From Paenibacillus sp. JZ16 (GTDB lineage Bacteria; Bacillota; Bacilli; Paenibacillales; Paenibacillaceae): 64,000 bases of DNA. The translations under genes were made by a program, and so were the position numbers. The notes beneath the pieces were generated by a model. That model was not told the origin of the DNA. It saw only the letters and a list, made by a program, of their open reading frames with translations, and did no database searches. Below are positions 1 to 36,552 of the stretch, one piece after another. The stretch is from assembly GCF_015326965.1 (NCBI RefSeq), contig NZ_CP017659.1:7329001-7393000 (forward strand). Reading direction: 5' to 3'. Every line of letters begins with the position of its first letter. Position 1 is the stretch's first letter.

Positions 1-611
1 TCAAAAAGTACTATTGCATGATGAAGCAGTCTCTTATGTTCGCCCTAAGAAAGAAAAGAAGTTGCCGAATGTTCTATCGATGAACGAAGTTGATGTTGAT
101 CTTAAAAGCACTCCATAATTTAAAACATCGTGCGATCCTATACCTTACCTATTCCTCAGGGTTACGGGTAGGGGAAGTGGTCCGGTTGAAAACTCAAGAC
201 ATTGATTTCGAGCGAAAAACGCTTCGAGTTTCTCAAGGCAAAGGTCGAAAGGACCGTCTTACCCTATTATCCGATACAGCTATGGATATTGTTCAACCGT
301 ATTTACAACAAGAAAAGCCCGAGAAATGGATGTTCCCAGGTCAACACCCAGAGCGACATATAACTGAACGAAGGGTTCAAAAAAGTGTTCGAACAAGCAC
401 GTACTGCCTCTGGAATCCAGAAAAAGGTTAGCATTCACGCCTTACGCCATTCATTCGCTACACATCTATTGAAGGTGGAATTGACATTCGCTACATTCAA
501 GAGTTGCTCGGTCATCAAAGTGTACGCACCACCGAAAAGTACACACATGTGAGTGTGAAGGACATAAGAAGGATTAAAAGTCCGTTAGACCAATTGGAAG
601 AGGAGTCGTAA
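1..611 (+). pseudogene. Tyrosine recombinase (XerC/D- or integron-integrase-like), left-truncated and frameshifted
   Basis: This is the C-terminal catalytic part of a tyrosine site-specific recombinase. Joining three frames gives a continuous domain with all catalytic boxes: Arg in SGLRVGE, Lys in the beta-hairpin GKGRKDR, H-x-x-R in HALRH, His in LLGH and the nucleophile Tyr in EKYTHV, followed by a KSPLDQL tail. Frame breaks lie near 92-96 (extra base), near 390 (a run of six A, one too many) and near 470 (one G missing). The stop is TAA at 609-611, and the N-terminal SAM-like domain would lie left of the window. The stretch between the FPG and HALRH boxes is short and lacks the extra helix that sets IntI apart from XerC/D, although the SPLD tail also occurs in IntI proteins. 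It reads toward the cassette array, the reverse of a classical intI. It may be the decayed array recombinase or an unrelated neighbour. Confidence 0.8.
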
Positions 612-625
612 ACTTGGTTGTTGAA

Positions 626-654
626 GGTGTGTTCACGAAGTTCGTAAACACCCC
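626..654 (+). terminator. Hairpin after the recombinase remnant
   Basis: An imperfect inverted repeat pairs GGTGTGTTCACGAA with TTCGTAAACACCCC. It lies 15 nt after the recombinase stop and has no clear T-run. It could be a weak terminator or part of a structured attachment region. Confidence 0.35.
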
Positions 655-671
655 AAGAGATGATATTTTTG

Positions 672-700
672 CGAAGTACGTGAATAAGACGTTAGCTGAA
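672..700 (+). other. attI-like or half-attC junction at the start of the cassette array
   Basis: This resembles the right half of the array sites: an arm ACGTGAATA followed by GACGTTAGCTG. Its R' box GTTAGCTG is the exact reverse complement of the R'' box of site 1 (CAGCTAAC near 1192), so it is the left boundary of the first cassette. It lies 60 nt after the recombinase remnant, where attI would be expected. It could equally be the surviving half of an attC whose left part was deleted. Confidence 0.55.
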
Positions 701-737
701 ATTGCTGTAATAAGAAATAAATAAGAGGTGCGGACAA

Positions 738-1142
738 ATGGAGGAGATTAGTCCTAAGTGTGCTGACAAAGAATCAATTGAAAGTCTCATAAAGAAATTA
801 CATTTACCGTCACTTACTCCGTTTTCGCAGGACTGGGAATATACGTCGGCTGATTCTTCGAGAGTAAATGAATTTATTACATTTTATGAGAATAATAAAT
901 TAAACAACAAAGAGAAATTTACGCTGATGATAGTTATAATATCTTCTTTTGATGATTATCTTTCCGAGGGAATAGGAACGGAAGACATCAAAATTTGGGA
1001 TCGAATAAAACAAAATATACTTAAAGACTATAAATTACATATCAATACCATTATCTATTGGGCACTAGAAGAGAACGACCTAGAGGATTGTTTTGCAGTC
1101 ACACCTTATATACGAGAGATCTTAGAACAAAAGAGCATGTAA
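738..1142 (+). CDS. Cassette 1: hypothetical protein, 134 aa
   Basis: I do not recognise the family. The protein is acidic, probably all-helical and soluble, with no signal peptide or membrane segment. A middle stretch (about residues 52-75, FTLMIVIISSFDDYLSEG) is hydrophobic and amphipathic. The ATG follows a ribosome binding site AAGAGGTG by 7 nt. It is a lone gene, flanked by the array boundary at 691 and by site 1, as in integron cassettes. It could be an immunity-like or adaptor protein, but nothing in the sequence proves a role. Confidence 0.7.
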   Translation: MEEISPKCADKESIESLIKKLHLPSLTPFSQDWEYTSADSSRVNEFITFYENNKLNNKEKFTLMIVIISSFDDYLSEGIGTEDIKIWDRIKQNILKDYKLHINTIIYWALEENDLEDCFAVTPYIREILEQKSM

Positions 1143-1192
1143 CTAACAACAAACAAATATCACTCGAGCATCTCAATGAAGTCAGCAACTCC

Positions 1193-1355
1193 AGCTAACA
1201 CCGTATTCACGCAGTAGACCTGACGGCCCTTGGTCTGCAGAGGCTTTTCGGGGAAGCGGAATCAGCAGACAACCCTGCACTGGCTAAGTCCGTCGGACCC
1301 GGGGCTTGCGCCCTTTAAGCCAGTGAGGGCTCGTGAATACAAGAGACGTTATGTG
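1193..1355 (+). repeat. attC-like site 1
   Basis: R'' AGCTAAC, arm GTATTCACGC, inner stem CTGCACTGGCTAAG / CTTTAAGCCAGTGAG, arm CTCGTGAATAC, R' GTTATGTG. R'' pairs exactly with the R' of the junction at 691, not with its own R'. The inner stem matches those of sites 8, 19 and 22. Confidence 0.9.
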
Positions 1356-1388
1356 AAACTACTGAAATAAATTTAAAAAGGTGTCCTG

Positions 1389-2366
1389 ATGACAAACATT
1401 GAAAAAATTAAGGCATTTCTATCTATAAAAAATTTTCTGAGTTTGAAAGATCAAGAATATTTAATTGAGAAACTAGAATTATCTGAAATTGACCTGACTA
1501 AACGCCTAAAAGGTAAAGAAACAGAGATCGAGTTGTATCTTATATTACATATGCTAGGTGTATGCAATCATATTTTAGCATTTGATGAAGGAACCTCTGT
1601 TTTGACGGGATCATATTCTCCAGACGCGATCATTGAACTGAAAAACGGATATAGATTTTTCATGGAAATTAAAAGTACGGATGACCAAATATTCAAAAAC
1701 AGCATGGGGAATCTTGAAAAGCGCATTAACTTTGCGAACTCTTTTGGATTGCCATTGTTCTTTGCAATAAAGTTAAGCGGATATTGGTCTCTTTATAATG
1801 CTGATTATTTAGTTTCAAAGAACGGACGTATTAGCCTCGTCGATGATTTCCATGACTCTGAGTTTTATACTATGTTCGAAAGCCATATGATTACTTTTCC
1901 TAATGGTTTTAAAGCTATTAGAAGGTACAAGAAAACAGAGGTAGAGGATTATATTTCAAAGCACGATGATTACGGATATATGATCAATTATGAATTGTTT
2001 TTCGATGAAAAGTTAGTATTTTCTTTTAATTCTAAAAGCGAAAAAGTGTTTTACTACTTTATTTTAGAGTCCTTAAACGACGCTATGTTGATGCAGGTAA
2101 AAGAAATCAATGAGTTAGGAAACGAAGAAATTGTAGAAATACTTCAACTAGAGTCAGATGTACTTTTATCTACTCATGGGATGTTATTAAGTCCTATCTT
2201 TCATCTGAAGCATCATTATGACTTTATGTACGATTCGACTACCTACTTTCAAGACATACTAAATAATGCGCCAACGCATCTTACTAAAGATATAATTTTT
2301 GCTCTCTTGTTAGAACTTATGCAAAATCACGTACCAATTAAGATGTTTACAAATAAGGAAGTATGA
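1389..2366 (+). CDS. Cassette 2: putative PD-(D/E)XK-superfamily nuclease, 325 aa
   Basis: A short motif typical of restriction-endonuclease-like folds is visible: Ser-Pro-Asp79 in a strand (SPDAIIEL) followed 13 residues later by Glu93-x-Lys95 (MEIKST). A helix with acidic residues (Glu45-Glu48) precedes it and could supply the fourth ligand. The C-terminal ~190 residues are helical and unassigned and may bind a partner or nucleic acid. No methyltransferase or helicase partner is adjacent, so it is a stand-alone cassette nuclease. Its role may be defence or cassette DNA processing. The ATG follows AAAAAGGTGTCCTG. Fold assignment is from motif reading only; an AP2-like or Mrr-like nuclease is possible. 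Confidence 0.65.
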   Translation: MTNIEKIKAFLSIKNFLSLKDQEYLIEKLELSEIDLTKRLKGKETEIELYLILHMLGVCNHILAFDEGTSVLTGSYSPDAIIELKNGYRFFMEIKSTDDQIFKNSMGNLEKRINFANSFGLPLFFAIKLSGYWSLYNADYLVSKNGRISLVDDFHDSEFYTMFESHMITFPNGFKAIRRYKKTEVEDYISKHDDYGYMINYELFFDEKLVFSFNSKSEKVFYYFILESLNDAMLMQVKEINELGNEEIVEILQLESDVLLSTHGMLLSPIFHLKHHYDFMYDSTTYFQDILNNAPTHLTKDIIFALLLELMQNHVPIKMFTNKEV

Positions 2367-2409
2367 CATGTGGCATGTGTTAGTTATTTCAAAGGAGACA
2401 GTAGCTTCA

Positions 2410-2502
2410 CACATAATATTCACGCTGTGGACATACGTCCTTGGTCCGGCATGCGCCGGACACCCAGCATGCGCTGGGTCGTGAATACAGGAACGTTATC
2501 TG
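2410..2502 (+). repeat. attC-like site 2
   Basis: A short site of about 93 nt. R'' CACATAAT is one base from the reverse complement of the preceding R' (GTTATGTG). Arms are TATTCACGC and GTGAATAC, R' is GTTATCTG. Two nested hairpins use GGCATGCGCC and CCAGCATGCGCTGG. Confidence 0.85.
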
Positions 2503-2536
2503 AAAGCATGGCAAAACCAATTTGGGCGGTGAAGTG

Positions 2537-2938
2537 ATGGTGTTAGCAGTTCGAAAATATCGAGAAACCGATCATGAACGAGTAATGCATTTACACATTG
2601 AAGGACTTAGACAGCACAATGCAAGCATCGGTGACCCGAGTATGGATAAGGATATGCAAAACATTTTGACAACATATATTGACAATGATGGTGATTTCTT
2701 AGTTGGAATACATGATAGCATGATCGTATGCATGGGCGCATACCGTAAACGAGAATATTTGACCGCAGAAGTTAAGAGAATAAGAGTAGATAGTGCTTAT
2801 CAAAGGCGAGGATATGGTCAAGATATATTGACTGCGTTAGAGAAGTCGGCCAAGCAAAAGGGATATGGAGAATTATTTTGGATACAACCATTAAAAACTA
2901 GATTTCAACTTATAAATTTAAAATTTATGTTAAATTAA
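2537..2938 (+). pseudogene. Cassette 3: GNAT acetyltransferase with frameshifted C-terminus
   Basis: An acetyl-CoA-dependent N-acetyltransferase of unknown substrate. The family core is clear: N-terminal VRKYRETDHERVMHLH, the acetyl-CoA loop YQRRGYGQDIL (Q/R-x-x-G-x-G) and the following helix. Translation ends as FWIQPLKTRFQ, whereas shifting one base reads LDTTIKN followed by a stop. This LDTT strand is the expected GNAT continuation, so a one-base change plus an early stop removed the last ~25-30 residues. ATG 2537 or GTG 2534 are the likely starts. There is no attC behind it: about 250 nt of AT-rich DNA leads directly to the next gene, so the cassette end has been lost. Confidence 0.7.
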
Positions 2939-3192
2939 TTGTATTGTTAGTGAGTTTGAATGATTTAAACAAAAATCAAATTTGATAAATATATAAGTTC
3001 TATAAGTGTTGTAATACTTTTACCCTGTTATTCAAAAAGTACTGGTTTAAGATAATAGAAACAATTAACAAAGGCGATTGAAAAATGAAAGTCAATTATC
3101 AATCGAAACTTAAAATTCCCTTTAAATCCAACTTAGAATTCTAATCTAAATATTGAATTTTATACTTTTAACACAGTAACTAAGAAATTAAA

Positions 3193-3846
3193 ATGAAAGA
3201 AGGAAGCGGGTTGAATACTCACTTACTAATAGAATATTTGAATGAAAATGGCACGCGATGGAGTAGTATAAGCAATAATTCTATAGAATTACCATTTGAA
3301 GTGAAGCCATATGAGTATATTTCTTTTGCAGAAAAAGATTTAGAATTAAATGATACTAGAGGTCGCATAAATGCATTATCCAATACTAAAAGAGCTTTAG
3401 ACTGTCAAATTGATTCTTTAATATACGCTTTCGGACTACATAATTTACCTAAGAAAAAACTGCGAAATATTCCTTGCAAGTTCGATCTGATTAAAGAGCT
3501 TGGAATAATTGCTCCAAGAGTTTTGTCAAAAATTAATAGTGTTAGAAACTTAGTGGAACATGAATTTGTTAGGCCAAGCCAAGAACAAGTAGAAGACTTT
3601 TATGACATAGTACATCTTTTTTTGTTAAGTACAGAAAAGTATATTTTGAATTTTCCTCATTTTTGTCAATTGGAAAATGATGAAAGAGAAGAATGGTTGA
3701 GTTTTGATTACGATAGAAAAGAAGGTTTTATTGAGTTTTCAGTTCATAGTAACGACGATAAGAAAGTTATTAAAATATATTCTTCAGATGAAAATTATAT
3801 TACAGTGTATGCATCTTTTATAAAAGTAGCTTTAAATTACAAGTGA
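3193..3846 (+). CDS. Cassette 4: putative HEPN-like protein, 217 aa
   Basis: I see a helical middle region with the motif Arg-Asn-Leu-Val-Glu-His (RNLVEH, near residue 117), matching the R-x4-6-H signature of HEPN ribonuclease domains. A long helix follows (QEQVEDFYDIVHLFLLS). The last ~60 residues are predicted beta-rich (EGFIEFSVHSND). ATG 3193 has no good ribosome binding site. TTG 3211 is preceded by GAAGGAAG and may be the real start, giving NTHLLIEYLNENG. It shares a cassette interval with the broken GNAT upstream and is closed by site 3. The role is unknown; HEPN proteins often act in toxin-antitoxin or anti-phage systems. Confidence 0.55.
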   Translation: MKEGSGLNTHLLIEYLNENGTRWSSISNNSIELPFEVKPYEYISFAEKDLELNDTRGRINALSNTKRALDCQIDSLIYAFGLHNLPKKKLRNIPCKFDLIKELGIIAPRVLSKINSVRNLVEHEFVRPSQEQVEDFYDIVHLFLLSTEKYILNFPHFCQLENDEREEWLSFDYDRKEGFIEFSVHSNDDKKVIKIYSSDENYITVYASFIKVALNYK

Positions 3847-4006
3847 AAATAAAAAAAGTGCAGATTCGACGTTTTTTTACTCGATGTAACGAAATGAGAA
3901 GGCTAGAGAAAATCTATTCAAAGATTTTTTTAAAGAAACAAAAAAGCAGACATTTAAGAAAATGAATAGGATTGAACATTAAGAGAATTGGTAAGGGCAC
4001 AGGCAG

Positions 4007-4105
4007 CATATAACAATATATTCACGCTGCGAGCATTCGCTCTTGGTCCAACATTCGTCGGACACCCGGCATACTCCGGGTCGTGAATATAGAAACGTTA
4101 TCAGA
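4007..4105 (+). repeat. attC-like site 3
   Basis: R'' CATATAAC, arms ATATTCACGC and CGTGAATAT, R' GTTATCAGA. It is of the short type with two stacked hairpins (GTCCAACATTCGTCGGAC and CCCGGCATACTCCGGG). R' pairs over nine bases with the R'' of site 4. Confidence 0.88.
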
Positions 4106-4128
4106 TATCAAATACAAGGAGTAAAAAA

Positions 4129-5474
4129 ATGAATAAAAACACATTTCAAGACTTATTACCAGAGACTCTTTATGAAAGTATAAAAACTAAGAGCTGTGGT
4201 TTTTTTGTTGGCGCTGGAGTGAGCAGTCTAAAACCAACAAATTTACCAAGCTGGAGAAACCTACTAATTCAATTCCTTGAATATGCAAAGTCAAACCAGA
4301 AATTAGAAGAACAGACACTATAAGAACTTGATAATGCTTTAGTATTAGGACAGTATTTAGAGATTGCTGAGTTTTTACAGGGAAGTTTAAAAGAAGATTA
4401 CATAAGATTTTTAAGGGGGATTTTTGATAATGAAACTCTGAACATAAATAGAAATCATGAGTTATTGGCTTCATTAGAATGTCCATTAATCATTACTACA
4501 AATTATGACAATCTTCTTGAAAAAGCTATGATTGTTCAAAGCTATAATCCGATTTCATCAACTGCAATTAATGTTGATTTACTTGAACAAATTCATAAGA
4601 TATCTCCTCGCAAAAAGATTCTAAAGATTCATGGTGATATAAACAACAGAGAAAGTTTAGTTCTTTCAGAAACGGATTACTTAAAGATACAAAATAATAA
4701 AATGTTAGATATTGTTCTTCGTAGCTTCTTTCATAGAATTTCTTTTATTTTTATAGGTTGCAGCATGAAAGATCCAGATGTATTAATTTTTTTGAAACAA
4801 ATAAAATCAATATTTGAAGGATTTACTCCTACACATTATGCATTAATAAGAAAAAGTGAAGTAAGTGAGTTAGATAAATATATTTATAAAAATATATATA
4901 ATATTGAATTCCTACTAATAGATGATTATGAAGAAGTTACACAATTTCTAGAATTGTCTCTTAAATTACAAAAAGAACAGAACAACTCTAATAATCAAGA
5001 ACTTATATTAAATGAACATTCTCAATTAAATTATTATGAATTCTGTTTAGACCAGTTTGAATACTATCATGATATCGAAATGAAGGATTATTATTTTGAT
5101 TCAGAAACTGATTATAGAAATATAAATCTGGACGATGACATTAAGATGTATCAATTTATATCGAATGTTTTAGAAGACTTTAAATCTATGGAACTTAATA
5201 AACTCCCATTGTTTCCACACGATGACCTGATTAATGTTGATAAATATATTAAAAGTACCTTAGATAATGTCATTTCATTGCCTAAAGTAAGAAAAAAACA
5301 ATTAGAAATCTTTGTAATGAAATAAATGAAGCAAATGATCATCTTGGATTTTTTGTAAAAAAATTGAAAGGATATATCAGATTGAGAAGAGTTCAACTTA
5401 GCAATGAAATTAATTCAACAGATTTAAATAGACTAATGTTAGAAAATTATCAAAAAAATTATTTTAAATTGTAA
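4129..5474 (+). pseudogene. Cassette 5: SIR2-family protein, interrupted by a nonsense codon and a frameshift
   Basis: A SIR2-like NAD-binding domain: N-terminal glycine-rich CGFFVGAGVSS, then TTNYDNLLE, KIHGD and the FIGCSMKDPD segment, as in SIR2_2 proteins that deplete NAD in anti-phage systems. TAA at 4321 interrupts the frame after 64 codons, and the same frame continues without a break through 4324-5325. A second lesion lies in the A-run near 5290-5296: one base shift extends the protein to a stop at 5472-5474 (...NYQKNYFKL). The unbroken protein would be about 448 aa with an unassigned helical C-terminal half, a common effector-plus-sensor layout. Restart at TTG 4465 would lose the Gly-rich motif. 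Sequencing error could explain either lesion. Confidence 0.75.
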
Positions 5475-5493
5475 CCAAGAAGGTCATATGACT

Positions 5494-5620
5494 TCTGATA
5501 ACATAATATTCAAGCAGCGGCTCCTAATGAAGCCTTGGTCTGTTGGAGGGATTATCGGGGAAGCAGATTCAGCAGACACATCCGACTGCGTTGGACGTCA
5601 TGAATACAGAAACGTCAGCC
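5494..5620 (+). repeat. attC-like site 4
   Basis: R'' TCTGATAAC is an exact nine-base partner of site 3 R'. Arms are ATATTCAAGC and CATGAATAC, and R' is the unusual GTCAGCC (TTA changed to TCA). The inner short hairpin is CCGACTGCGTTGG. Confidence 0.88.
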
Positions 5621-5648
5621 TAAATAAGAGAGGGAAAGAGTGGGATAG

Positions 5649-6146
5649 ATGATTCAAAGTAGATATTTATTTATATCTCGTGAAGGCAAAGTTGTAAAGA
5701 TCGCTCGGCCTAAAGATCATAAGTATAAATCTGTTCCTCAATTAGCAGGTGAGGACGTACTTGAGGTGATCTTATATTACAGGAATAAAGATAGGAAGCC
5801 GCATAAACTGCTTATGGTAGAATTTGATAGATTCCATTTGGATTCTCACGGAAATTATGAACAGACAGAAGAAGATAGAAAAAGAGCTTTTCATAATTTT
5901 CTTTCTTTTGGGATGGCTAATTTGCTTGAAGGAATAGAAGTAGAAGATAAGCCGCTACCTATACCTGTTGCTCCGATAATTCCGACAACTGCTGAGAAAA
6001 GATCATTATACAATTACATAAATGAGAAATTACCCAGTTTTTCAGATGATGCTCCCTACGTAGTAGAAAGTAAAATTGAAGCTTCTAGAGAGAAGTATGA
6101 AGAGTTTAAAAGCATGGCAAAGAAATCAAAAAAGCTGCCTAAGTAG
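5649..6146 (+). CDS. Cassette 6: hypothetical protein, 165 aa
   Basis: Family not recognised. The first ~95 residues look like an alpha/beta fold (RYLFISREGKVVKIARP, DVLEVILYYRNKDRKPHKLLMVEFDRFHLD). A proline-rich linker PLPIPVAPIIPTTAEKRS follows, and then a lysine-rich helical tail ending KSKKLPK. There is no signal peptide or membrane segment, so it is presumably cytoplasmic. The ATG sits 8 nt after AGAGAGGGAAAGAGTGGG. It is the only gene between sites 4 and 5. Confidence 0.7.
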   Translation: MIQSRYLFISREGKVVKIARPKDHKYKSVPQLAGEDVLEVILYYRNKDRKPHKLLMVEFDRFHLDSHGNYEQTEEDRKRAFHNFLSFGMANLLEGIEVEDKPLPIPVAPIIPTTAEKRSLYNYINEKLPSFSDDAPYVVESKIEASREKYEEFKSMAKKSKKLPK

Positions 6147-6158
6147 TTCGAAGAAGAA

Positions 6159-6229
6159 GCTGACATCACATAACATAATATTCACGCTGCGGGCATTCGC
6201 TGGGTCGTGAATACGGGGACGTTATAAGA
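6159..6229 (+). repeat. attC-like site 5 (minimal, ~60-70 nt)
   Basis: The shortest intact site. Two candidate R'' boxes exist: GCTGAC at 6159-6164, which pairs with the odd R' of site 4 (GTCAGC), and CACATAAC at 6167-6174 in the standard position. Arms are ATATTCACGC / CGTGAATAC, R' is GTTATAAGA. The loop is only about 20 nt, close to classical 60-bp attC elements. Confidence 0.85.
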
Positions 6230-6308
6230 AATCCCACAAAATCAAACGACTATACTAATAGGGAGGAAGAGCAAAATAGAATCCTTAATAAATCTTAGAA
6301 AAATCAAA

Positions 6309-6788
6309 ATGGATGATTATGAGACGGTTTTAGCATGGAGTAGGAATGAACTGTTCTGCTCATCAAATGGATGGGAACAGAACAGGGATGAAAAAGAGGT
6401 ATATCGATGGTGGGAAGCTTGCGTTAATACACCCTTAGATGATTTTGTACGAAAAGGGATTGAATATAAACATGAACTAATTGGCTATACGGATCTGGCT
6501 TACATAAAAGATCAGACAGCAGAGTTAGGAATTGCAATAGGTGCAAGCCATTATTGGGGTAAAGGTATAGGGTCTGAAGCAGGCAGAAGAATGATGGAAT
6601 ACGGATTAGATGAGTTTGGAATAACCATATATTACGCAGAAACAAATGAGTATAATATGGCATCTAGAAGAATGCTGGAAAAGTTAGGTTACAAAGAAAC
6701 AGGAAGAGAAGGACAAGAAGAGTACAGAGGCAAAGAAGGTCAACTAATACATTATGAATATAAAGTAGCAAACTACAAGAATGTATAG
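6309..6788 (+). CDS. Cassette 7: GNAT acetyltransferase, RimJ/RimL type
   Basis: A GNAT of the Acetyltransf_3 type that would move acetyl from acetyl-CoA to an amine, possibly a protein N-terminus or a small molecule. Visible: ELGIAIGASHYWGKGIGSEAGRRMMEYG (strand 4, acetyl-CoA loop G-K-G-I-G-S) and the C-terminal NEYNMASRRMLEKLGYKETGREGQ. In-frame codons upstream of ATG 6309 encode LINLRKIK, the usual first strand. The ribosome binding site GGGAGG (about 6261) is 9 nt from an ATA codon at about 6276, so the native start may be this ATA (or a mutated ATG). Translation from 6309 alone would lose the first beta strand. Confidence 0.85.
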   Translation: MDDYETVLAWSRNELFCSSNGWEQNRDEKEVYRWWEACVNTPLDDFVRKGIEYKHELIGYTDLAYIKDQTAELGIAIGASHYWGKGIGSEAGRRMMEYGLDEFGITIYYAETNEYNMASRRMLEKLGYKETGREGQEEYRGKEGQLIHYEYKVANYKNV

Positions 6789-6949: not shown

Positions 6950-6978
6950 GTACGGGATCAGCTCCAAAGGCGGGGACA

Positions 6979-7096: not shown

Positions 7097-7097
7097 G

Positions 7098-7826: not shown

Positions 7827-7852
7827 TAGTAATTCAACGATAACAGTAGCAT

Positions 7853-28491: not shown

Positions 28492-28522
28492 AGATAGATA
28501 GTAATTCTACGAGGTAAGTAGC

Positions 28523-28695: not shown

Positions 28696-28730
28696 AATCA
28701 GCACAAAACATATTTATGGAGGATTAACAA

Positions 28731-29333: not shown

Positions 29334-29405
29334 GAACATTTTGTAGGTTGTTCATAGATATTAATGCAAATCTGAATTAGAAACTATTCTGGGGAAGGTG
29401 TCTTC

Positions 29406-30221
29406 ATGGACAAGAAGTCTGTAAATAGAGGATCAATCCTTATTGGCGCTGGCGAAGTTGGCGTAACCATTTCGGAAAACATGGATAAGAATGTTGTTCA
29501 TAAGACAAACAGGCTCTATTGGGATACAAAAGGCAATGACTTCTTAAGAGCAATTTCACTTCCTTATTATGGAGGGTTTATCTCAGAAGAAAAATGCCAG
29601 CTCTTTGGCGATATCTCAGGAAAAAAACTGCTGGAGATCGGCTGCGGCAACGGCCAATCCTTGCAATATCAAGGGGAACGAAACGCATCTGAACTATGGG
29701 CTGTGGATATATCGGAAAAACAAATTGAAAAGGCAACGCAGCATTTGGAATCGCTCGGTCTATCGGCAAAATTCATCTGTTCTCCCATGGAAGAAGAATG
29801 CGGCATACCGGCGGATTATTTTGACTATGTTTATTCGATTTATGCCATCGGTTGGACAACCGACCTTGAAGGTACCTTTTGCCGTATCGCTACGTATCTT
29901 AAAAAAGATGGTGTATTTATTTTCAGTTGGTCTCATCCTATACACAGATGCGTTACTGATGATAATGGTAGGTTTGTTTTTAGAAAGAGTTATTTCGATG
30001 AAGCTTGGTATCCGGTAGCTGTTGATGAAGGTGAGCTATTATTAGCGGACCGTAAGCTATCAACCTATGTGAACGCTCTGGCGAAAGCGGGATTTGTAAT
30101 TGAGCAATTGATTGAGCAAACTGATGATGAGATTATGCAATCGCGGGACGATAAAAGCGATTTGGCCAAGAGAGCGAGGATGCTTCCTGTAACCTTAGTG
30201 ATTAAGGCAAGAAATCTATAA
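29406..30221 (+). CDS. Class I SAM-dependent methyltransferase, 246-271 aa
   Basis: A Rossmann-fold methyltransferase: motif I LLEIGCGNGQS, motif II acidic end LWAVDIS, and ADYFDYVYSIYAIGW before a DGVFIFSWSHP strand. The substrate is unclear; the family includes small-molecule methylases. ATG 29406 has GGGGAAGGTG upstream, but an internal ATG at 29481 (DKNVVHKTNRLYWDTKGNDF) matches the usual family start, so the first 25 residues may be extra. Its G+C is higher than most cassette genes. It shares one inter-site interval with cassette 32, so either a site was lost or the two moved as one unit. Confidence 0.87.
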   Translation: MDKKSVNRGSILIGAGEVGVTISENMDKNVVHKTNRLYWDTKGNDFLRAISLPYYGGFISEEKCQLFGDISGKKLLEIGCGNGQSLQYQGERNASELWAVDISEKQIEKATQHLESLGLSAKFICSPMEEECGIPADYFDYVYSIYAIGWTTDLEGTFCRIATYLKKDGVFIFSWSHPIHRCVTDDNGRFVFRKSYFDEAWYPVAVDEGELLLADRKLSTYVNALAKAGFVIEQLIEQTDDEIMQSRDDKSDLAKRARMLPVTLVIKARNL

Positions 30222-30283
30222 TATCTGATGACAAAGCGAAGCATGTATAAAGAACTTTAGAGGTATTGAGGAAGGCATTGACA

Positions 30284-30351
30284 TCCGATAACACTATTTT
30301 CACGCATCGGGCATACGCCCTCGGTCCGGTAGAAGATAGAACGTTAGGCGA
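30284..30351 (+). repeat. attC-like site 31 (collapsed)
   Basis: R'' TCCGATAAC and left arm TATTTTCACGC with hairpin CGGGCATACGCCCTCG are present. The sequence then jumps to AGAACGTTAGGCG, so the right arm and inner stem are deleted but both R boxes remain. Confidence 0.75.
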
Positions 30352-30390
30352 AATCCTCAAAGTATTCAGAATAGGTGGGGAAGCATTAAA

Positions 30391-30663
30391 TTGCTTCCTA
30401 ACAGTAGAACTATTTTCAGAAGGGACCTGCTGATGAGAAGAAGATATTCTATTGAAAAAGCAGAGTGGTCAGAAACAAGAGAAAAAAAGTATCAACAAGA
30501 CTGTAGAGATATTGTATTTAAGTTCGATGATGAGCTTTTACAGCAAGATGACGCCGTTTATTTAAATAGAAAAGAAGGACAAACTATGGTGATAAAGCCT
30601 TTAAATCAAAAAACATTTTGGTACGAAATATGGTTAAAACTCAAAGACATCTATAATACATAA
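30391..30663 (+). CDS. Cassette 33: hypothetical protein, 76-90 aa
   Basis: Family not recognised. It is short, basic and charged (RRRYSIEKAEWSETREKKYQQD; NRKEGQTMVIKPLNQK), with no membrane segment. TTG 30391 follows GGTGGGGAAGCATTAAA. ATG 30433 is an alternative that would give 76 residues. It may be a fragment of a longer gene. Confidence 0.55.
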   Translation: MLPNSRTIFRRDLLMRRRYSIEKAEWSETREKKYQQDCRDIVFKFDDELLQQDDAVYLNRKEGQTMVIKPLNQKTFWYEIWLKLKDIYNT

Positions 30664-30750
30664 TGAAACATAGAATTTAAAAGACAGTTTAAAACCTAGG
30701 CAGATCTGATTGAAGATCCTTGTGAGCAACATCAGGAAGTCGAGGACTAC

Positions 30751-30848
30751 GTCTAACATAATATTCACGCTGCGGACTTTCGTCCTTGGCCCAGCATTCG
30801 CCGGGCGCTCAGCAGACGCTGAGTCGTGAATACAGAAACGTTAGATGA
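30751..30848 (+). repeat. attC-like site 32
   Basis: R'' GTCTAAC, arms ATATTCACGC / CGTGAATAC, R' GTTAGATGA. It is of the short type with two stacked hairpins as in sites 2 and 3. It is intact and lies within the decaying part of the array. Confidence 0.88.
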
Positions 30849-30885
30849 ATTCGCTAGAAGATAATGAAAGTAGGTGCAATCATAG

Positions 30886-31641
30886 GTGTATCTAAACCAG
30901 TTTCATGCAATGATTGGATCACTCTTTGGGGAATTACTTATTAAATTTAAAGATCAAGGGGAATATGGTTTCACCAATAAAACTCAAAGAGAATGTAAAC
31001 GAATTGGCTATTCAACGAATATTACACCGGAATTGATTGAACAAGCATATGAGAAAAAGATCGATATAATGATAACTCATCATGACGCTTGGAATTTCAT
31101 CTATGGAATGAAGGACGAGTGCGTGCGCAGGCTCAAAGCTTATGATATTGCCCACTTCTTCATACATTTACCTTTGGACTATGCTAATTTTGGTACAGGA
31201 CAGTCGTTATTAAATGAAATCGGTCAAATACAAATGATCCAAGGATCATACTATTTGAATGGAGAAAGTCGAATCGGGATAGGAGAATTGCTTGAGACAA
31301 TTACATTCAATGAGTTAGTGACTCGATTGAAATTGCAATGCAATGAAGAGGTAAAGGCTTGGAACTTTGGAACGCAGTCAATTCAGCGAATCGGAATCCT
31401 TACGGGAGCAGGCGATGGTACGAAACATGTAAGAGAAGCTTTGGAAGCACAGTGTGATGTCTATATAACAGGGGAGAAGACGTTATATACAATTCAGTAT
31501 GCTGAATTTTCAAAGATCAATTTGATTGTAGGGAGCCACACATTTACCGAGGTGTTTGGAGTTCGATCGCTTGCAAATAAAGTCCGAGAGTCGTTTCCGG
31601 AAATCGAAATTGTATACATTGAAGAAAAACATATGGAATAG
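30886..31641 (+). CDS. Cassette 34: Nif3-like dinuclear metal centre protein, 251 aa
   Basis: A member of the Nif3/YqfO (GTP cyclohydrolase 1 type 2) family. Metal-binding signatures are visible: ITHHDAWNF (His-His), HLPLDYANFGTGQSLL (H-x-x-x-D), and a C-terminal ILTGAGDGTKHVREALEAQCDVYITGE. The family forms hexameric rings; its true reaction is debated. It starts at GTG 30886 after AAAGTAGGTGCAATCATAG. Length is that of the short family form without the central insert. It is not near rpoD or trmK as chromosomal copies are, so this is an accessory paralogue. Confidence 0.85.
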   Translation: MYLNQFHAMIGSLFGELLIKFKDQGEYGFTNKTQRECKRIGYSTNITPELIEQAYEKKIDIMITHHDAWNFIYGMKDECVRRLKAYDIAHFFIHLPLDYANFGTGQSLLNEIGQIQMIQGSYYLNGESRIGIGELLETITFNELVTRLKLQCNEEVKAWNFGTQSIQRIGILTGAGDGTKHVREALEAQCDVYITGEKTLYTIQYAEFSKINLIVGSHTFTEVFGVRSLANKVRESFPEIEIVYIEEKHME

Positions 31642-31666
31642 ATTGTGAGGGTAATTCAAAGCGACT

Positions 31667-31772
31667 TTGACTAACAGCATTCACGCATCGGCTGACGTTC
31701 TCGGCCGCAGACGTGGATTCGAGGAAGTGATTGCCGCGGCAACTCCCTACGGGAGTTCGTGAGTGCGAGGAA
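31667..31772 (+). repeat. attC-like site 33 (R' lost)
   Basis: R'' TTGACTAAC, left arm GCATTCACGC, inner hairpin ACTCCCTACGGGAGT and right arm CGTGAGTGC are recognisable and match site 23. The sequence then reads GAGGAAGCC, with no GTTA box. Confidence 0.78.
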
Positions 31773-31785
31773 GCCAAAAGCTATT

Positions 31786-31951
31786 TAGACAATAAATACA
31801 AACCAGATGGATCATATCTGGACTTGAAATCTTTAGGATAACCCATATTCATGTAAGGCAAGCAGGTAGCTGGTCTGAACAATTCGATTTATTATTTCGA
31901 GATTACTTAAGAACTCATGAAGAATATGTAAGGGAGAACGAAACAATGAAA
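31786..31951 (+). pseudogene. Remnant of a GrpB (UPF0157) family gene
   Basis: Two frames join near 31843 into a GrpB-like C-terminal piece: KYKPDGSYLDLKSLG, then ITHIHVRQAGSWSEQF and DLLFRDYLRTHEEYVREN. No start or N-terminal half is present. It abuts the next HAD gene and follows the damaged site 33, marking a deletion in the array. Confidence 0.55.
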
Positions 31952-32566
31952 AAGTACATACTCTTCGATCATGATGGTGTTCTGGTTGATACAGAATACT
32001 GGTATTACAAAGCGGGAGAACGCGCTCTGGCTGACATTGGATTTACCTTGGATAAAGATCAATACCTCCGCGACATGACCCAGTCGCTGGGCACTTGGTC
32101 CCAAGCTAGGGCGGCAGGCATTAATGAACAGACGATAAGCAAGCAGCGTGAGGTCCGCAACGTCTATTATCAGGAATATCTAAGAACAGAAACCATAGAG
32201 ATTGAAGGCGTAGTTGAAACTCTAGCCGAACTGTCAAAGTACGTCCGCATGGCCATCGTGACGACTGCAAAACGTGCGGATTTTCAACTTATTCACGAAA
32301 AGCGCCAGATTAGACAATTCATGGATTTCGTCCTTGTTCGAGAAGACTATGAGCGCACCAAGCCGCACCCGGAACCATACTTGACCGGCCTAAAGCGCTT
32401 GGGAGCTACCAAAGAAGAGACCCTGGTTGTAGAGGATTCAAACAGAGGGTTGAACTCAGCCGTGGCGGCTGGTATCGACTGTGTTATTGTCCATAACGAC
32501 TTCACCAAAACACATGACTTCTCACAGGCCAGCTATCGAATCAAGACTATTCTGAAAGTAACCTGA
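31946..32566 (+). CDS. Cassette 35: HAD-family hydrolase, beta-phosphoglucomutase-like, 206 aa
   Basis: Motif I is FDHDGVLVDTE (nucleophile Asp near residue 8), AIVTTAKRAD is motif II, VREDYERTKPHPEPYL has the motif III Lys, and VVEDSNRGLNSAVAAG is motif IV. A small helical cap of the beta-phosphoglucomutase type lies between residues ~15 and 80. It hydrolyses or mutates a phosphorylated metabolite. The ATG follows TAAGGGAGAACGAAACA. The G+C is higher than its neighbours. Confidence 0.9.
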   Translation: MKKYILFDHDGVLVDTEYWYYKAGERALADIGFTLDKDQYLRDMTQSLGTWSQARAAGINEQTISKQREVRNVYYQEYLRTETIEIEGVVETLAELSKYVRMAIVTTAKRADFQLIHEKRQIRQFMDFVLVREDYERTKPHPEPYLTGLKRLGATKEETLVVEDSNRGLNSAVAAGIDCVIVHNDFTKTHDFSQASYRIKTILKVT

Positions 32567-32651
32567 GAGGGCATTCGCCAGCACGTCCCGTACTCACGTT
32601 TTAAATGATATAAGTGATTGGGTTTACAAGATTTCATGAACGGTCAGGAAT

Positions 32652-32726
32652 AGATCACCTACCGCGTCACGGCCGCTCTTTGGGCTTAAGGTGATGGGAC
32701 GTCGTGAACACTACAACGTTTTGTGA
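32652..32726 (+). repeat. attC-like site 34 (right half only)
   Basis: Inner module ATCACCTACCGCGTCACGG with CTTAAGGTGATG, right arm CGTGAAC and a drifted R' GTTTTGTG are present. The left arm and R'' have been lost or have decayed in the ~80 nt after the HAD gene. Confidence 0.7.
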
Positions 32727-32769
32727 ATCATAGTGTGATATTTAATGAAAGTATCTAAAGGAGTCCTGT

Positions 32770-33345
32770 ATGAAGACAATTATCTATATGGTTAGGCATG
32801 GGGAATCACCATATAATGAAGGAAATGAAAGAATAAGAGGGCTTACCCCAACAGGAAAGGCTGATATTGAAAAAGTAACGAAGTTACTTATAGGTGAAGG
32901 AATAGATAAGATTATATCAAGTCCTTATACTCGAGCAATTCTTAGTGTTGAGGGATTGGCCAAGCACTTAAAGTTAGATATTGAGGTATTTGAAAATCTT
33001 AGAGAACGTCATTTTGCATCTTATATTATTGATAATGCAGAGTTAATTTCTAGTATCAGAGAGAGTTTTAATGACCCTGATTATACCTTGCTGGGTGGAG
33101 AGTCTAATGCAGATTGTCAGAAAAGAGCAATCTCAGTTCTAAAGCTCATATTTAAAGAGCACAGAGGGAAGAGAATAGCAATTGGGACTCATGGTCTTGT
33201 AATGACTTTGATGATGAATCATTTTGATTCAGCTTTTGGCTTGGAGTTTTTGAATCAATTAAAGAAACCAGATATTTATAAAATGCAGTTTGATGACTTA
33301 GAATTAGAAGAGGTAACGAGAATGTGGAATGACCAGATTTCTTAA
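32770..33345 (+). CDS. Cassette 36: histidine phosphatase family protein, 191 aa
   Basis: A phosphoglycerate-mutase-like phosphatase: N-terminal YMVRHGESPYNEGNERIRGLTPTGKADIEK has the R-H-G catalytic motif and the second Arg. IISSPYTRAILSVEGLA carries the next conserved Arg. RIAIGTHGLVMTLMMNH holds the second His. It removes phosphate through a phospho-histidine intermediate; substrate unknown. ATG 32770 follows AAAGGAGTCCTGT. Confidence 0.9.
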   Translation: MKTIIYMVRHGESPYNEGNERIRGLTPTGKADIEKVTKLLIGEGIDKIISSPYTRAILSVEGLAKHLKLDIEVFENLRERHFASYIIDNAELISSIRESFNDPDYTLLGGESNADCQKRAISVLKLIFKEHRGKRIAIGTHGLVMTLMMNHFDSAFGLEFLNQLKKPDIYKMQFDDLELEEVTRMWNDQIS

Positions 33346-33370
33346 GGTTTATCGAAGAGGACTGCGGTAT

Positions 33371-33411
33371 TACATAACAGAGTATTCGCTACGGGGACAA
33401 GCCCCTTAAAT
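33371..33411 (+). repeat. attC-like site 35 (left fragment)
   Basis: R'' TACATAAC and a left arm AGTATTCGC with hairpin CGGGGACAAGCCCC are present. The next sequence is unrelated and leads to the Nudix gene, so the right half is missing. Confidence 0.65.
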
Positions 33412-33431
33412 ATATTTTGGGAGGCGACTTC

Positions 33432-33485
33432 ATGAAGCGTTTAGAAGACCATTATAAAACCTCGATTAAAGGAATTGAAGCTTAA
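33432..33485 (+). CDS. 17-codon ORF ahead of the Nudix gene
   Basis: ATG 33432 follows TTTGGGAGGCGACTTC, a strong ribosome binding site. The ORF stops at TAA 33483-33485, and the next ATG (33486) begins at once. It could be a leader peptide giving translational coupling to the Nudix gene, whose own ribosome binding site is weak, or the N-terminal stub of a lost cassette gene. Confidence 0.35.
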   Translation: MKRLEDHYKTSIKGIEA

Positions 33486-34034
33486 ATGCAGTTGATTAGA
33501 AAAATTACTGATCATGAGATTCTCGGAGGCCCTATTAAATTGATAGAGCCAGTGTCACGATTTGCTTCAAGAGGTGTGTTAATTGATGGAGCGTTGAATG
33601 TAGCCATGATGTACATGTCAAAACCTGATCTATACAAATTGCCAGGAGGAGGAATCGAAGAAAAAGAAACAAAAGAGCAGTCTTTCTTAAGGGAGATTAA
33701 AGAAGAGACTGGATATGAGGCAGAATCAACTTATGAACTGGGGTATATTGAAGAACATAAAGCAAAAAATAACTTTTTGCAGATATCTTATTGTTGGATA
33801 GCAAATGTAAGGAAAAGGATATGCAGTTTAAACCTAAGTGAAAGTGAAAAACAACTCGGTATGACGGTTAAATGGATGACATTAGATGAGGCATTAGAAG
33901 TAATGAGCGAGTCACTTATACATTGTAATGAGTACTCAACAAAATTCATGATTATACGAGATAAGACAATCCTTGAAATTGCTTACGAAATAATAACAAA
34001 GAGTGAAAAGAATATTTGGGGTAACTCGAAGTAG
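33486..34034 (+). CDS. Cassette 37: Nudix hydrolase, 182 aa
   Basis: The Nudix box is complete: PGGGIEEKETKEQSFLREIKEETGYEAE (G-x5-E-x7-R-E-x-x-E-E-x-G). It should cleave a nucleoside-diphosphate-type substrate with Mg. The N-terminal region (FASRGVLIDGALNVAMMYMS) is the first sheet and TVKWMTLDEALEVM a late strand-helix. It is typical of MutT/ADP-ribose-type small Nudix proteins. Its ATG directly follows the stop of a short upstream ORF. Confidence 0.88.
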   Translation: MQLIRKITDHEILGGPIKLIEPVSRFASRGVLIDGALNVAMMYMSKPDLYKLPGGGIEEKETKEQSFLREIKEETGYEAESTYELGYIEEHKAKNNFLQISYCWIANVRKRICSLNLSESEKQLGMTVKWMTLDEALEVMSESLIHCNEYSTKFMIIRDKTILEIAYEIITKSEKNIWGNSK

Positions 34035-34041
34035 TCCTAAC

Positions 34042-34216
34042 CTCCTATAACAAAGTATTCACGTAGCGGGCCGACTGACGTCGTCCCTTGGTCCGCCCGA
34101 AGCATTTCATGGAAGCTGAATCAGGCGGACAACCCTGACCGACTAACCGCATCGCGGCCGGCTCCTCCAGAGCCTTAGTCGGTGAGGATTCGTAGATACA
34201 CATAAACGTTAACTGA
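34042..34216 (+). repeat. attC-like site 36
   Basis: An intact site in the distal region. R'' CTCCTATAAC, arms AGTATTCACG and a variant CGTAGATAC that no longer matches it well, R' GTTAACTGA, inner module ACCGACTAACCGCATCGCGG. The mixed arms suggest recombination between site types or drift. Confidence 0.82.
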
Positions 34217-34861: not shown

Positions 34862-34864
34862 CTC

Positions 34865-35098
34865 AAAGAAGAAGAGATACTAGAAGCTATTAATTTATTT
34901 ACAAGAGCTAAGGAAGACAACTATGAAGAATTCATTGATAAAACATTAAAGAACCGAATAGCTAGAAATGTAAAGATAGCTGATATTAAAGAGAATATGA
35001 ATTCATCAAGAATACAAGATCCTTCAGAACAAGATTACCTGCGACTCGAGAAATATAAAAGAGCATTGGAAAGACTGGAAAGACAATTTGAAAGTTAA
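34865..35098 (+). pseudogene. C-terminal remnant of a small HD / (p)ppGpp-hydrolase-like gene
   Basis: An open frame of 78 codons without a start codon: FTRAKEDNYEEFIDKTLKN, then RIARNVKIADIKENMNSSRI and SEQDYLRLEKYKRALERL. V-K-x-A-D-x-x-x-N-M-(D/N) followed by L-x-K-Y-x-x-A is the C-terminal signature of small HD-domain proteins annotated as GTP pyrophosphokinases. The N-terminal half with the HD metal site is missing. It follows the kinase gene directly without a recombination site. Confidence 0.6.
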
Positions 35099-35114
35099 TC
35101 AAGAAGAGGGTATA

Positions 35115-35153
35115 GGCGTAACACCATGTTCACGCTTCGGGCCATTCACCCAC
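35115..35153 (+). repeat. attC-like site 37 (left fragment)
   Basis: R'' GGCGTAAC followed by arm CATGTTCACGC and CTTCGGGCCATTC. The rest of the site is missing and the glyoxalase-like gene begins 30 nt later. Confidence 0.6.
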
Positions 35154-35183
35154 AGAAAATTTGTACACGAGGAGAAAAAAACT

Positions 35184-35639
35184 ATGGAAAAAAATAAGTT
35201 ACTAAGAATGGACAATGTCGGCATCGTTGTAGAATCCCTTGATGACGCAATTTCTTTCTTCGAGGAGATTGGCTTGACCCTCGAAGGGCGAACGACTGTC
35301 GAAGGGGAATGGGCTGGTCGCGTAACCGGACTAGGTACTCAGTGTGTAGAGATTGCTATGATGGTTACCCCAGATGGCCACAGCCGACTTGAACTTTCGC
35401 GATTTCTCACCCCACCTACGATATCCGATCACCGGACGGCTCCTGTAAACTCCCTTGGTTATTTACGCGTCATGTTCACAGTTCAAAACATTGATGAGAT
35501 GGTATCCAGACTCACTACTAAGCATGGTGCGCAACTCGTTGGCGAAATGGTTCAATACGAGGATTCGTATCGGCTCTGCTACATTCGTGGAACCGAAGGA
35601 CTTCTAATCGGTTTGGCGGAACAACTCGGTAACAAATAA
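35184..35639 (+). CDS. Cassette 39: VOC (glyoxalase/bleomycin-resistance) family protein, 151 aa
   Basis: Two beta-alpha-beta-beta-beta modules of the vicinal oxygen chelate fold: RMDNVGIVVESLDDAISFFEEIGL and GYLRVMFTVQNIDEMVSRL. A terminal strand has YIRGTEGLLIGLAEQL with Glu. Members are metal-dependent lyases, dioxygenases or binding proteins; the exact role is unclear. ATG 35184 follows ACGAGGAGAAAAAA. An upstream in-frame ATG at 35088 lies in the previous remnant. No complete recombination site precedes it. Confidence 0.88.
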   Translation: MEKNKLLRMDNVGIVVESLDDAISFFEEIGLTLEGRTTVEGEWAGRVTGLGTQCVEIAMMVTPDGHSRLELSRFLTPPTISDHRTAPVNSLGYLRVMFTVQNIDEMVSRLTTKHGAQLVGEMVQYEDSYRLCYIRGTEGLLIGLAEQLGNK

Positions 35640-35744
35640 ATAAGTGACGTTTTTTTTGAAAAAACTCTACTGAAATATACGTTAATAGAGTAAAAAAACA
35701 AAAAAAGTAAAGCTGTGTGGAAGTATCTCGAAGAAATTGGGTGC

Positions 35745-35875
35745 GTCATGTAACAGCGTATTCACGCATTGAGTATTCGCCAATGGTCCGGGGATGTTAT
35801 TGGCTTGGAAGTATAGGCAGCGGACACTTCAATATTCGTCGGACGTCGTGAATACTGATTACGGAGATCATTATA
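35745..35875 (+). repeat. attC-like site 38 (R' lost), last site of the array
   Basis: R'' CATGTAAC, arms CGTATTCACGC / CGTGAATAC and hairpin ATTCGTCGG are present. R' has drifted to CTGATTACGG with no GTTA. No further site was seen between here and the window end. Confidence 0.72.
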
Positions 35876-35970
35876 ATTTAATGAATTACGCGACTACGGC
35901 CAAACTTAGTAAAAACTATGATGTATATAGATTAAAAGAAGGGTGTAATTGTAGGGGAGCGTAGCTAATT

Positions 35971-36552
35971 GTGAAGAAATCCTACTTGTTTTTACTTATT
36001 CTGGTTATTTTGTTGTTATCGGCTTGTCAATCATCAGAACAATTAAAGCCGATAAAAGAAGAAACCATTGATTTCGACTTAAACACTGCAATAGAAATGG
36101 TTGAGAAGAAAGAGAAAATGATCATTGATTTAGCATTGAGAGAAAAGGTGTCAAAACTGGAGTATAAGGAATTAGAGAAATCTTTTACCGAAGAGTTTGG
36201 AGTCCATGCTAAGGATATTCTATCCATATTATTTATCCATAATATGGATTCTGATCCCGAGTCAGATATGTATGTAGAGCAGAACACATTATACCCTACA
36301 CTCTTTCATAAAGGAATAACTATAACAAATGCGGTCGTTTATAAGAGTTACTTCGAGAATGAGTTTTTTAATCAAACTAGATTAAGCATTGAGGAAGAAT
36401 ATGTTGGTGATGATGAGAAGTTAAAGGATTGGAAAAGAGAATACATATTTATTCCAAACAAAAATGGAGAATGGGAATTAAATGGATTTTCTGGAGTGAT
36501 GAATTTCTTAGACGAAGATTATAATATGAATTATTTAGAGTTAAAGAGGTAA
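35971..36552 (+). CDS. Cassette 40: lipoprotein of unknown function, 193 aa
   Basis: The signal peptide KKSYLFLLILVILLLSACQ has a lipobox L-S-A-C with Cys19, so the mature protein should be lipid-anchored outside the cell. The mature part begins with a charged helix (DLNTAIEMVEKKEKMIID). It ends with a small beta domain (EYIFIPNKNGEWELNGFSG). Family not recognised. It starts at GTG 35971 after TAGGGGAGCGTAGCTAATT. It is the last intact gene of the cassette-type region. Confidence 0.78.
   Translation: MKKSYLFLLILVILLLSACQSSEQLKPIKEETIDFDLNTAIEMVEKKEKMIIDLALREKVSKLEYKELEKSFTEEFGVHAKDILSILFIHNMDSDPESDMYVEQNTLYPTLFHKGITITNAVVYKSYFENEFFNQTRLSIEEEYVGDDEKLKDWKREYIFIPNKNGEWELNGFSGVMNFLDEDYNMNYLELKR

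What the first reader, a model, noticed from the sequence alone, without database searches (positions are those of the whole stretch)
1..36552. A ~36-kb integron-like gene-cassette array in a Paenibacillus-like Gram-positive
Seen: about 38 imperfect palindromes, each with an R''-type box ending in TAAC, complementary arms (ATTCACGC / GTGAATAC) and an R'-type box CGTTA, separate about 40 mostly single, small, unrelated genes, nearly all on one strand. Known: this is the layout of chromosomal integrons, studied mainly in Gammaproteobacteria such as Vibrio. Inference: a large mobile or formerly mobile integron in a Firmicute would widen the host range of the system, with a site family unlike classical attC.
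Basis: partly seen in the sequence, partly recalled or inferred. Interest (0 to 1): 0.95.

Follow-up and report, generated by a model that had tools for sequence, protein, structure and literature searches.

The report
Integron with a HARP-domain recombinase
This Paenibacillus-type chromosome carries a 36-kb row of about 32 gene cassettes beside a broken recombinase gene, and some of the same cassettes sit between other neighbours in other species; they were likely moved by an enzyme unlike the known integron integrase, in a group of bacteria reported to almost lack integrons.

Summary
Window 1196-34211 holds 27 sites by strict pattern and 32 with less regular ones; 31 of 32 cassettes have their longest ORF on the + strand. 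The box at a cassette's 5' end is complementary to the box at its own 3' end, not to that in its palindrome (0 of 20,000 permutations; 213 cassettes in 20 loci). Nineteen cassette pairs, 89-98% identical, are shared between genomes in largely unrelated surroundings. Two sister species share both chromosomal flanks but hold mostly different arrays; the left break is at the attI-like site. So this is an integron-like array, but not a canonical integron: the adjacent recombinase, broken here and intact in relatives, lacks the ~40-residue IntI insertion (26 of 26; present in 24 of 24 IntI), lies outside the IntI clade and has a predicted HARP-like N-terminal domain. Its sites are predicted to fold as hairpins with a ~19-bp R stem. 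Profile matches occur in 103 of 296 genomes of the order and 40 of 398 of the phylum. Recombination is untested.

The parts
1..611 (+). 3' part of the adjacent tyrosine recombinase gene (pseudogene, several frames; continues upstream of the window, where much of the HARP-like half is missing)
   Evidence: three-frame translations; profile match G000:C1:7329084-7329608
626..652 (.). imperfect palindrome between recombinase stop and attI-like site (possible extra binding site; inferred)
   Evidence: sequence
671..702 (+). attI-like insertion site, crossover GTTA at 691-694; first cassette starts here
   Evidence: similar site after the recombinase stop in relatives; similarity to two sister species ends at 702
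691..34211 (+). cassette array with 32 attC-like sites, one cassette before each
1196..1351 (+). attC-like site 1
2409..2498 (+). attC-like site 2 (R'' degenerate)
4011..4100 (+). attC-like site 3
5499..5617 (+). attC-like site 4
6171..6224 (+). attC-like site 5, shortest (54 bp)
7857..8038 (+). attC-like site 6
8911..9063 (+). attC-like site 7
9726..9861 (+). attC-like site 8
10424..10609 (+). attC-like site 9
11272..11390 (+). attC-like site 10
12147..12328 (+). attC-like site 11
13271..13431 (+). attC-like site 12
14173..14290 (+). attC-like site 13
14936..15050 (+). attC-like site 14
15573..15732 (+). attC-like site 15
16354..16513 (+). attC-like site 16
16948..17089 (+). attC-like site 17
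17556..17708 (+). attC-like site 18
18212..18401 (+). attC-like site 19 (R'' degenerate)
19237..19377 (+). attC-like site 20
20334..20487 (+). attC-like site 21
21216..21319 (+). attC-like site 22
22075..22214 (+). attC-like site 23
23111..23263 (+). attC-like site 24
24394..24508 (+). attC-like site 25
25052..25204 (+). attC-like site 26
25883..26033 (+). attC-like site 27
26698..26851 (+). attC-like site 28
28529..28690 (+). attC-like site 29
30754..30843 (+). attC-like site 30
32581..32721 (+). attC-like site 31 (degenerate; 3' half clear)
34048..34211 (+). attC-like site 32
21316..22214 (+). cassette with an LprI-domain gene, ~96% identical in arrays of four other genomes and 94% in G091
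35119..35850 (+). decayed distal end of the array: half-sites at 35119 and 35751
35850..36796 (.). distal flank: similarity resumes at 35850 (G090, continuing from 36602) or 36796 (G091)

Best explanation
This is the cassette array of an integron-like gene-capture system, whose cassettes were likely excised and inserted by a tyrosine recombinase of a family that lacks the IntI-specific insertion and instead has a predicted HARP-like N-terminal domain, which would help bind folded single-stranded sites. Shown: cassettes run from G^TTA to the next site and are modular; the end boxes of one cassette match each other, as they must if they sit together in a circular form; cassettes recur in other species with other neighbours; an attI-like sequence lies between the recombinase gene and the first cassette; the gene is broken in this genome, and no intact copy was found in it. 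Inferred: the bottom strand of the circular cassette folds into a ~19-bp R stem, an asymmetric internal loop, an 8-bp L stem and up to three hairpins; the recombinase binds the R and L stems, cuts at the GTTA of the R box and joins the cassette at attI, next to its own gene; the HARP-like domain, whose known relatives act on forked or annealing DNA, takes over the hairpin-recognition job that the extra domain does in IntI. With the enzyme gone, this array is probably a fossil that can move only in trans.
Confidence: 0.88

Rival explanations
1. A canonical IntI integron that reached a Firmicute by horizontal transfer.
For: Layout, G^TT crossover and folded sites are as in integrons; TIGR02249 scores 192-223 bits.
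Against: No match over the TIGR02249 cut-off (265) in 40 of 40 relatives or in 10 of 10 genomes of other loci, whereas 49 of 249 Pseudomonadota genomes have one. IntI insertion absent in 26 of 26. IntI forms its own clade, 100/100.
Confidence: 0.02
2. The array is real and mobile, but another recombinase (host XerC/D, a mobile IntI, or an element in trans) moves the cassettes and the adjacent HARP-type gene is a bystander.
For: The adjacent gene is broken or truncated here and in G090/G091 although the arrays differ strongly; no biochemical link.
Against: Co-location at the insertion end, same strand, with an attI-like site, in many genomes and more than one phylum; in the window and its near relatives attI-like and attC-like sites share the CGTGAA half-site; no IntI found in the genomes searched.
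Confidence: 0.07
3. An ordinary interspersed palindromic repeat or terminator family dropped between genes.
For: Palindromes follow most genes of the array.
Against: Complementarity links the two ends of a cassette, not the two ends of a palindrome; sites are concentrated in the array and two small clusters; no Rfam match in window 1-40000.
Confidence: 0.01
4. A generic variable island (defence island or prophage hotspot) whose contents change by homologous recombination in the flanks.
For: SIR2, TIR and HNH genes are present; flanks are conserved.
Against: Single cassettes with matching ends recur in different contexts and species; recombination in the flanks would swap blocks, not single bordered cassettes.
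Confidence: 0.02

Closest known systems
Sedentary chromosomal integrons with IntI (Vibrio and others)
   Same: Tandem same-strand cassettes, folded recombination sites, G^TT crossover, R'/R'' matched within a cassette, attI next to the recombinase gene (integron features recalled)
   Different: Recombinase lacks the IntI-specific domain and has a predicted HARP-like N-terminus; gene points into the array; R stem ~19 bp, mostly uninterrupted L arm, predicted multi-hairpin top (7-bp R box and extrahelical bases of classical attC are recalled)
Reverse integron of Treponema denticola (PMC4909258, passages)
   Same: Integrase gene in the same direction as the array
   Different: The passages call its integrase IntI; no HARP domain mentioned in those seen
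Archaeal integrons (PMC9668308, passages)
   Same: Integron outside the usual hosts; attC-type folding
   Different: Their IntI are said to carry the IntI-specific domain; ours lack it
The only complete Firmicutes integron in that survey, Limnochorda pilosa (PMC9024848, passages)
   Same: Firmicute host
   Different: Found with an IntI-based tool; not compared with this family here
XerA/XerC/XerD recombinases
   Same: Catalytic fold; no IntI insertion; NF040815 XerA scores 213-224 bits against a cut-off of 220, reached by 1 of 6
   Different: Shorter, about 300 aa, without the N-terminal extension; coupled cassettes in 0 of 12 control loci, nine of them only 3-4 kb long
HARP domain of SMARCAL1 and T4 UvsW (PMC4666394, PMC9243424, passages)
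   Same: Predicted fold of the N-terminal domain: five strands and two main helices
   Different: Joined to a recombinase, not to a helicase

Membership tests
Integron (IntI-defined) | Integrase with the IntI-specific additional domain near patch III | tested here: not met
   Motif distance 66-69 residues in 26 of 26 against 108-120 in 24 of 24 IntI; below TIGR02249 cut-off in 6 of 6
Integron (IntI-defined) | Recombinase falls in the IntI clade | tested here: not met
   IntI one clade 100/100; HARP-type rows outside it
Integron (works like) | Tandem cassettes, one orientation, separated by palindromic sites | tested here: met
Integron (works like) | R' at 5' end complementary to R'' at 3' end of the same cassette | tested here: met
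Integron (works like) | attI-like sequence between recombinase gene and first cassette | tested here: met
   By sequence and by the synteny break only; function not tested
Integron (works like) | Predicted folding favours the bottom strand | tested here: met
   184 of 213 by energy model; not by experiment
Integron (works like) | Cassettes exchanged at the predicted borders between genomes | tested here: met
Integron (works like) | Recombination catalysed by the adjacent enzyme | not testable with these tools
   Needs an assay
Integron (IntI-defined) | Integrase gene divergent from the array (most classes; recalled) | tested here: not met
   Same strand in the array loci; reverse integrons are known
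Integron (IntI-defined) | Pc promoter driving cassettes | not tested
   -
HARP domain (PF07443) | Match to the Pfam profile | tested here: inconclusive
   At or above cut-off in 3 of 9, 0 of 6, 0 of 9; E<=0.05 in 23 of 57; E<=1 in 6 of 11 N-terminal pieces, best 0.0005
HARP domain (PF07443) | Fold of five strands and two helices, like UvsW and SMARCAL1 | tested here: inconclusive

The most novel reading that the evidence does not exclude
There is a second great class of integrons, run by HARP-domain integrases, in Bacillota and Bacteroidota and perhaps Spirochaetota and archaea, overlooked because integron searches are built on IntI; its sites are cloverleaf-topped hairpins read through a fork-binding domain, and the classical IntI of Proteobacteria is one derived branch that lost HARP and gained its own insertion.
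Probability: 0.35. Interest if true: 0.96.

Novelty: new variant of a known kind. Interest (0 to 1): 0.92.

Why it matters
An integron survey reports integrons as extremely rare in Firmicutes and calls such gaps intriguing (PMC9024848 passages). A recombinase family without the IntI domain but with cassette arrays, matching 103 of 296 sampled genomes of the order (about 50 at full length), would answer that: the systems were there but outside the search model. It would also show that the IntI insertion is not the only way to handle folded single-stranded sites, and would open a large pool of mobile genes, including likely phage-defence genes, in Gram-positive bacteria.

Tried and rejected
Canonical IntI integron: rejected. 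Interspersed repeat: rejected. Structured RNA: no Rfam match at gathering threshold in window 1-40000. The first generic palindrome finder was too noisy by counts and was replaced by tests of end-box coupling. That coupled detector is not general: on 15 IntI loci it found an array in 1 (5' side) and in 0 on the 3' side, so its negatives elsewhere mean little. In one search only loci with an ORF of 330 aa or more matching one motif, and 2.5 kb or more downstream, were counted (21 loci); of its 15 positives, three (L206, L215, L218) rest on one cassette; its quick HARP regex labelled 8 of 21 'noHARPmotif' and was not used. The 28 automatic sites in the window include one at 25798 that is not in the hand list and is probably false; it also entered. 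One search was given 20 of the loci with three or more sites; five Bacteroidota loci with three or more (L047, L058, L086, L107, L111) were not given. The full-length model against PDB gave recombinases in the 50 rows shown. The N-terminal profile and sequence against PDB sequences gave SMARCAL1 HARP only at E 0.27 and 0.53, behind unrelated entries. The quick tree was replaced by the careful one. Of 48 candidates in the IntI and Xer lists for the tree, 8 gave no ORF by my motif and were left out; 1 of 16 Xer rows could not be measured. The label 'HARP-type' in the tree rests for several rows only on an N-terminal extension aligned to the query, not on Pfam. The matches include remnants and some that lack the N-terminal part, so 103 of 296 is an upper figure. 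Short flank matches (54-179 nt, 6 of 19 pairs) I took for neighbouring sites without checking. The species of the window genome was not settled. Assembly errors in the broken recombinase are not excluded.
Full report
What is there. The window is bases 7,329,001-7,393,000 of a 7.42-Mb single-contig genome. From 1196 to 34211 it holds 27 sites by a strict pattern and 32 with five less regular ones, plus half-sites. Between sites lie cassettes; the longest ORF is on the + strand in 31 of 32. G+C is 31-40% in 2-kb steps up to 36 kb and 44-55% from 38 kb on. By Pfam the contents include several GNAT acetyltransferases, SIR2 and TIR genes (which match Thoeris and other defence models in PADLOC), HNH, NUDIX, HAD, a methyltransferase, a CDI immunity protein and a lysozyme-inhibitor domain; many have no family (39 array ORFs and one flank ORF scanned).

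Why it is a cassette array. In an integron a cassette passes through a circle in which its 5' box and its 3' box lie side by side in one site; once inserted, they are separated by the gene. So complementarity should join the two ends of a cassette, not the two ends of a palindrome. This holds in the window (4.97 of 8 within cassette, 3.69 within palindrome, 3.39 elsewhere; 0 of 20,000 permutations; 31 cassettes) and reaches about 12 nt beyond GTTA. In 20 loci of the order with at least three sites each, 213 cassettes give 9.02 of 12 against 5.50 (same palindrome, 234 sites) and 5.15 (other), permutation maximum 6.03. Sixteen loci are significant alone (at most 23 of 2000 permutations). L025, L028 and L034 have only 5, 3 and 2 cassettes and are not; L151 (6 cassettes) shows no signal. 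A search by end-box coupling alone found 240 sites in 30 loci, and their arms match 6.93 of 9 against 5.83 permuted (maximum 6.05), with paired variants such as GTATTCACG/CGTGAATAC, GTATCTACG/CGTAGATAC and GTGTTCACG/CGTGAACAC: structure is kept while sequence changes. In 45 of the 240 the arms match at four or fewer positions at the fixed offset used.

Mobility. Among 212 cassettes of 15 genomes (19 loci), 19 pairs between different genomes are 89-98% identical over at least 95% of the shorter one. In 7 the match runs end to end in both, from the crossover to TAAC; in 9 one member lies in a longer interval, I think because a site between was missed; in 3 it stops about 45 nt before TAAC in one member. 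Beyond the cassettes only short matches (54-179 nt) appear, in 6 of the 19 pairs. The window cassette at 21316-22214 is about 96% identical in G004, G014, G064 and G083; rpoB of G000 and G083 is 79.4% identical. The close species G091 and G090 (rpoB G000-G091 97.3%, G090-G091 98.5%) share the upstream flank in blocks of 89-95% identity, with gaps and one 70-71% block between them, up to window 702, and a downstream flank of 5.7-5.9 kb at 94% from 36796 and 36602, with G090 already alike from 35850. The intervals between are about 35-36 kb, 64 kb (G091) and 24 kb (G090) and share only a few blocks. The left break lies at the attI-like site.

The recombinase. Window 1-611 plus upstream sequence is a tyrosine recombinase pseudogene: much of the first half of its N-terminal domain, seen in G090, is missing and the frame is broken repeatedly. 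G090 keeps that half but its frame is broken; G091 has an open frame over the catalytic part but lacks much of the N-terminal half. A search of G000 with an intact relative found no match at E<=1e-40. Intact relatives, mostly about 350-415 aa, sit at the same place in other genomes. In the genus sample 26 of 100 genomes match at E<=1e-40, many as remnants; in the order (which I take to be Paenibacillales) 103 of 296 and in the phylum 40 of 398 match a 20-row profile at E<=1e-60, intact, broken or without the N-terminal part. By hand count of the listing, 51 of the 296 have a match from the first 25 to beyond position 340 of 365 without an internal stop. All six intact proteins tested fall below the integron-integrase cut-off (192-223 bits against 265) and match that profile in two pieces, with a gap where IntI has its own domain (profile positions 180-234). 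The distance between two motifs is 66-69 residues in 26 of 26, 64-74 in 15 Xer-type rows and 108-120 in 24 of 24 IntI. In the tree (66 rows) IntI is one clade (100/100); Bacillota HARP-type rows group at 96/64 with six HARP-less rows as their sister (97/93), Bacteroidota rows at 94/88, two Spirochaetota rows at 95/85; one Undinarchaeota HARP-type row is sister to IntI (99/89); all of these together group at 90/73. This hints that IntI came from HARP-type stock, on one archaeal sequence and moderate support.

The sites. On the DNA energy model the bottom strand of the reconstituted circular site is more stable than the top in 184 of 213 (mean -36.6 against -34.2 kcal/mol), and the reconstituted junction is more stable than the array junction in 185 of 213. 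The six folds printed show a long R stem, an asymmetric internal loop, an L stem and one to three hairpin arms. Position 7 after GTTA is A in the 5' box of 30 of 32 window sites and C (top strand) in the 3' box of 30 of 32: a mismatch on the top strand, a wobble on the bottom. The attI-like site after the recombinase stop has the crossover and, in the window and its near relatives, the CGTGAA half-site (loci not counted).

Beyond Paenibacillaceae. With a stricter test (end boxes plus perfect 6-bp arms; shuffle means 0-0.10) 15 of 21 loci with an intact ORF have coupled cassettes downstream, 12 of them two or more, and 0 of 21 upstream: 6 of 6 loci of the order, 3 of 6 other Bacillota loci, and 6 of 9 Bacteroidota loci, among them Rufibacter, Natronoflexus and Algibacter. 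Six have none, and the detector misses classical sites, so this neither proves nor excludes arrays elsewhere.

Known work. [quoted passage not shown] PMC9668308 and PMC2426708 (passages) define IntI by the additional domain. PMC8618304 (passages) lists Firmicutes among phyla with detected integrons. Searches of the held PMC library showed me no HARP-linked integrase and no Paenibacillus integron in their listings; 'HARP domain' with 'integrase' gave 0 papers. Most subscription journals and all preprints are outside it, so this is no proof that nobody has seen it.

Verdict. Integron-like by the structural and comparative tests run; not an IntI integron by two defining tests; recombination, the role of the HARP-like domain, and present-day activity in this genome are inferred.

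Noticed in passing
G000:C1:490.9-494.0 kb (L143) and 773.7-774.8 kb (L144): Two small extra clusters of complete attC-like sites with cassettes elsewhere in the same chromosome; no search for a recombinase beside them was made. A decayed-looking third pair lies near 7.417-7.419 Mb (L145).
   Followed up: partly
window 6171-6224: A 54-bp site that keeps R and L arms and a minimal loop, suggesting that the extra hairpins are dispensable or that it is decayed.
   Followed up: no
window 4129-5325 and 12360-13247: Broken SIR2 gene and a TIR gene resembling Thoeris and other defence proteins, in separate cassettes.
   Followed up: partly
L258 (Chryseobacterium sp. SNU WT5 plasmid), 11929-24961: Related recombinase annotated 'integron integrase' on a plasmid, followed by small, mostly same-strand genes with a group II intron maturase among them: possibly a plasmid-borne array.
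   Followed up: no
L102 8810-10837, L111 8630-10741: Array-linked recombinases of 676-704 aa that seem to hold a second, degenerate recombinase-like unit before the active one.
   Followed up: no
L095, L098 (Sphingobium), L194, L196, L197, L200 (same phylum as the window): Recombinases without the N-terminal extension that are sister to the Bacillota HARP-type branch in the tree; no coupled cassettes found in the stretches held.
   Followed up: partly
G137, G143, G153, G161: Some genomes of the family have two separate matches to the recombinase, the second often broken or partial.
   Followed up: no
L155 cassettes 3 and 14 (G091): The same cassette twice in one array, 97.5% identical over its full length.
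   Followed up: partly
window 626-652: Imperfect palindrome between recombinase stop and attI-like site, also present in G090 and G091.
   Followed up: no
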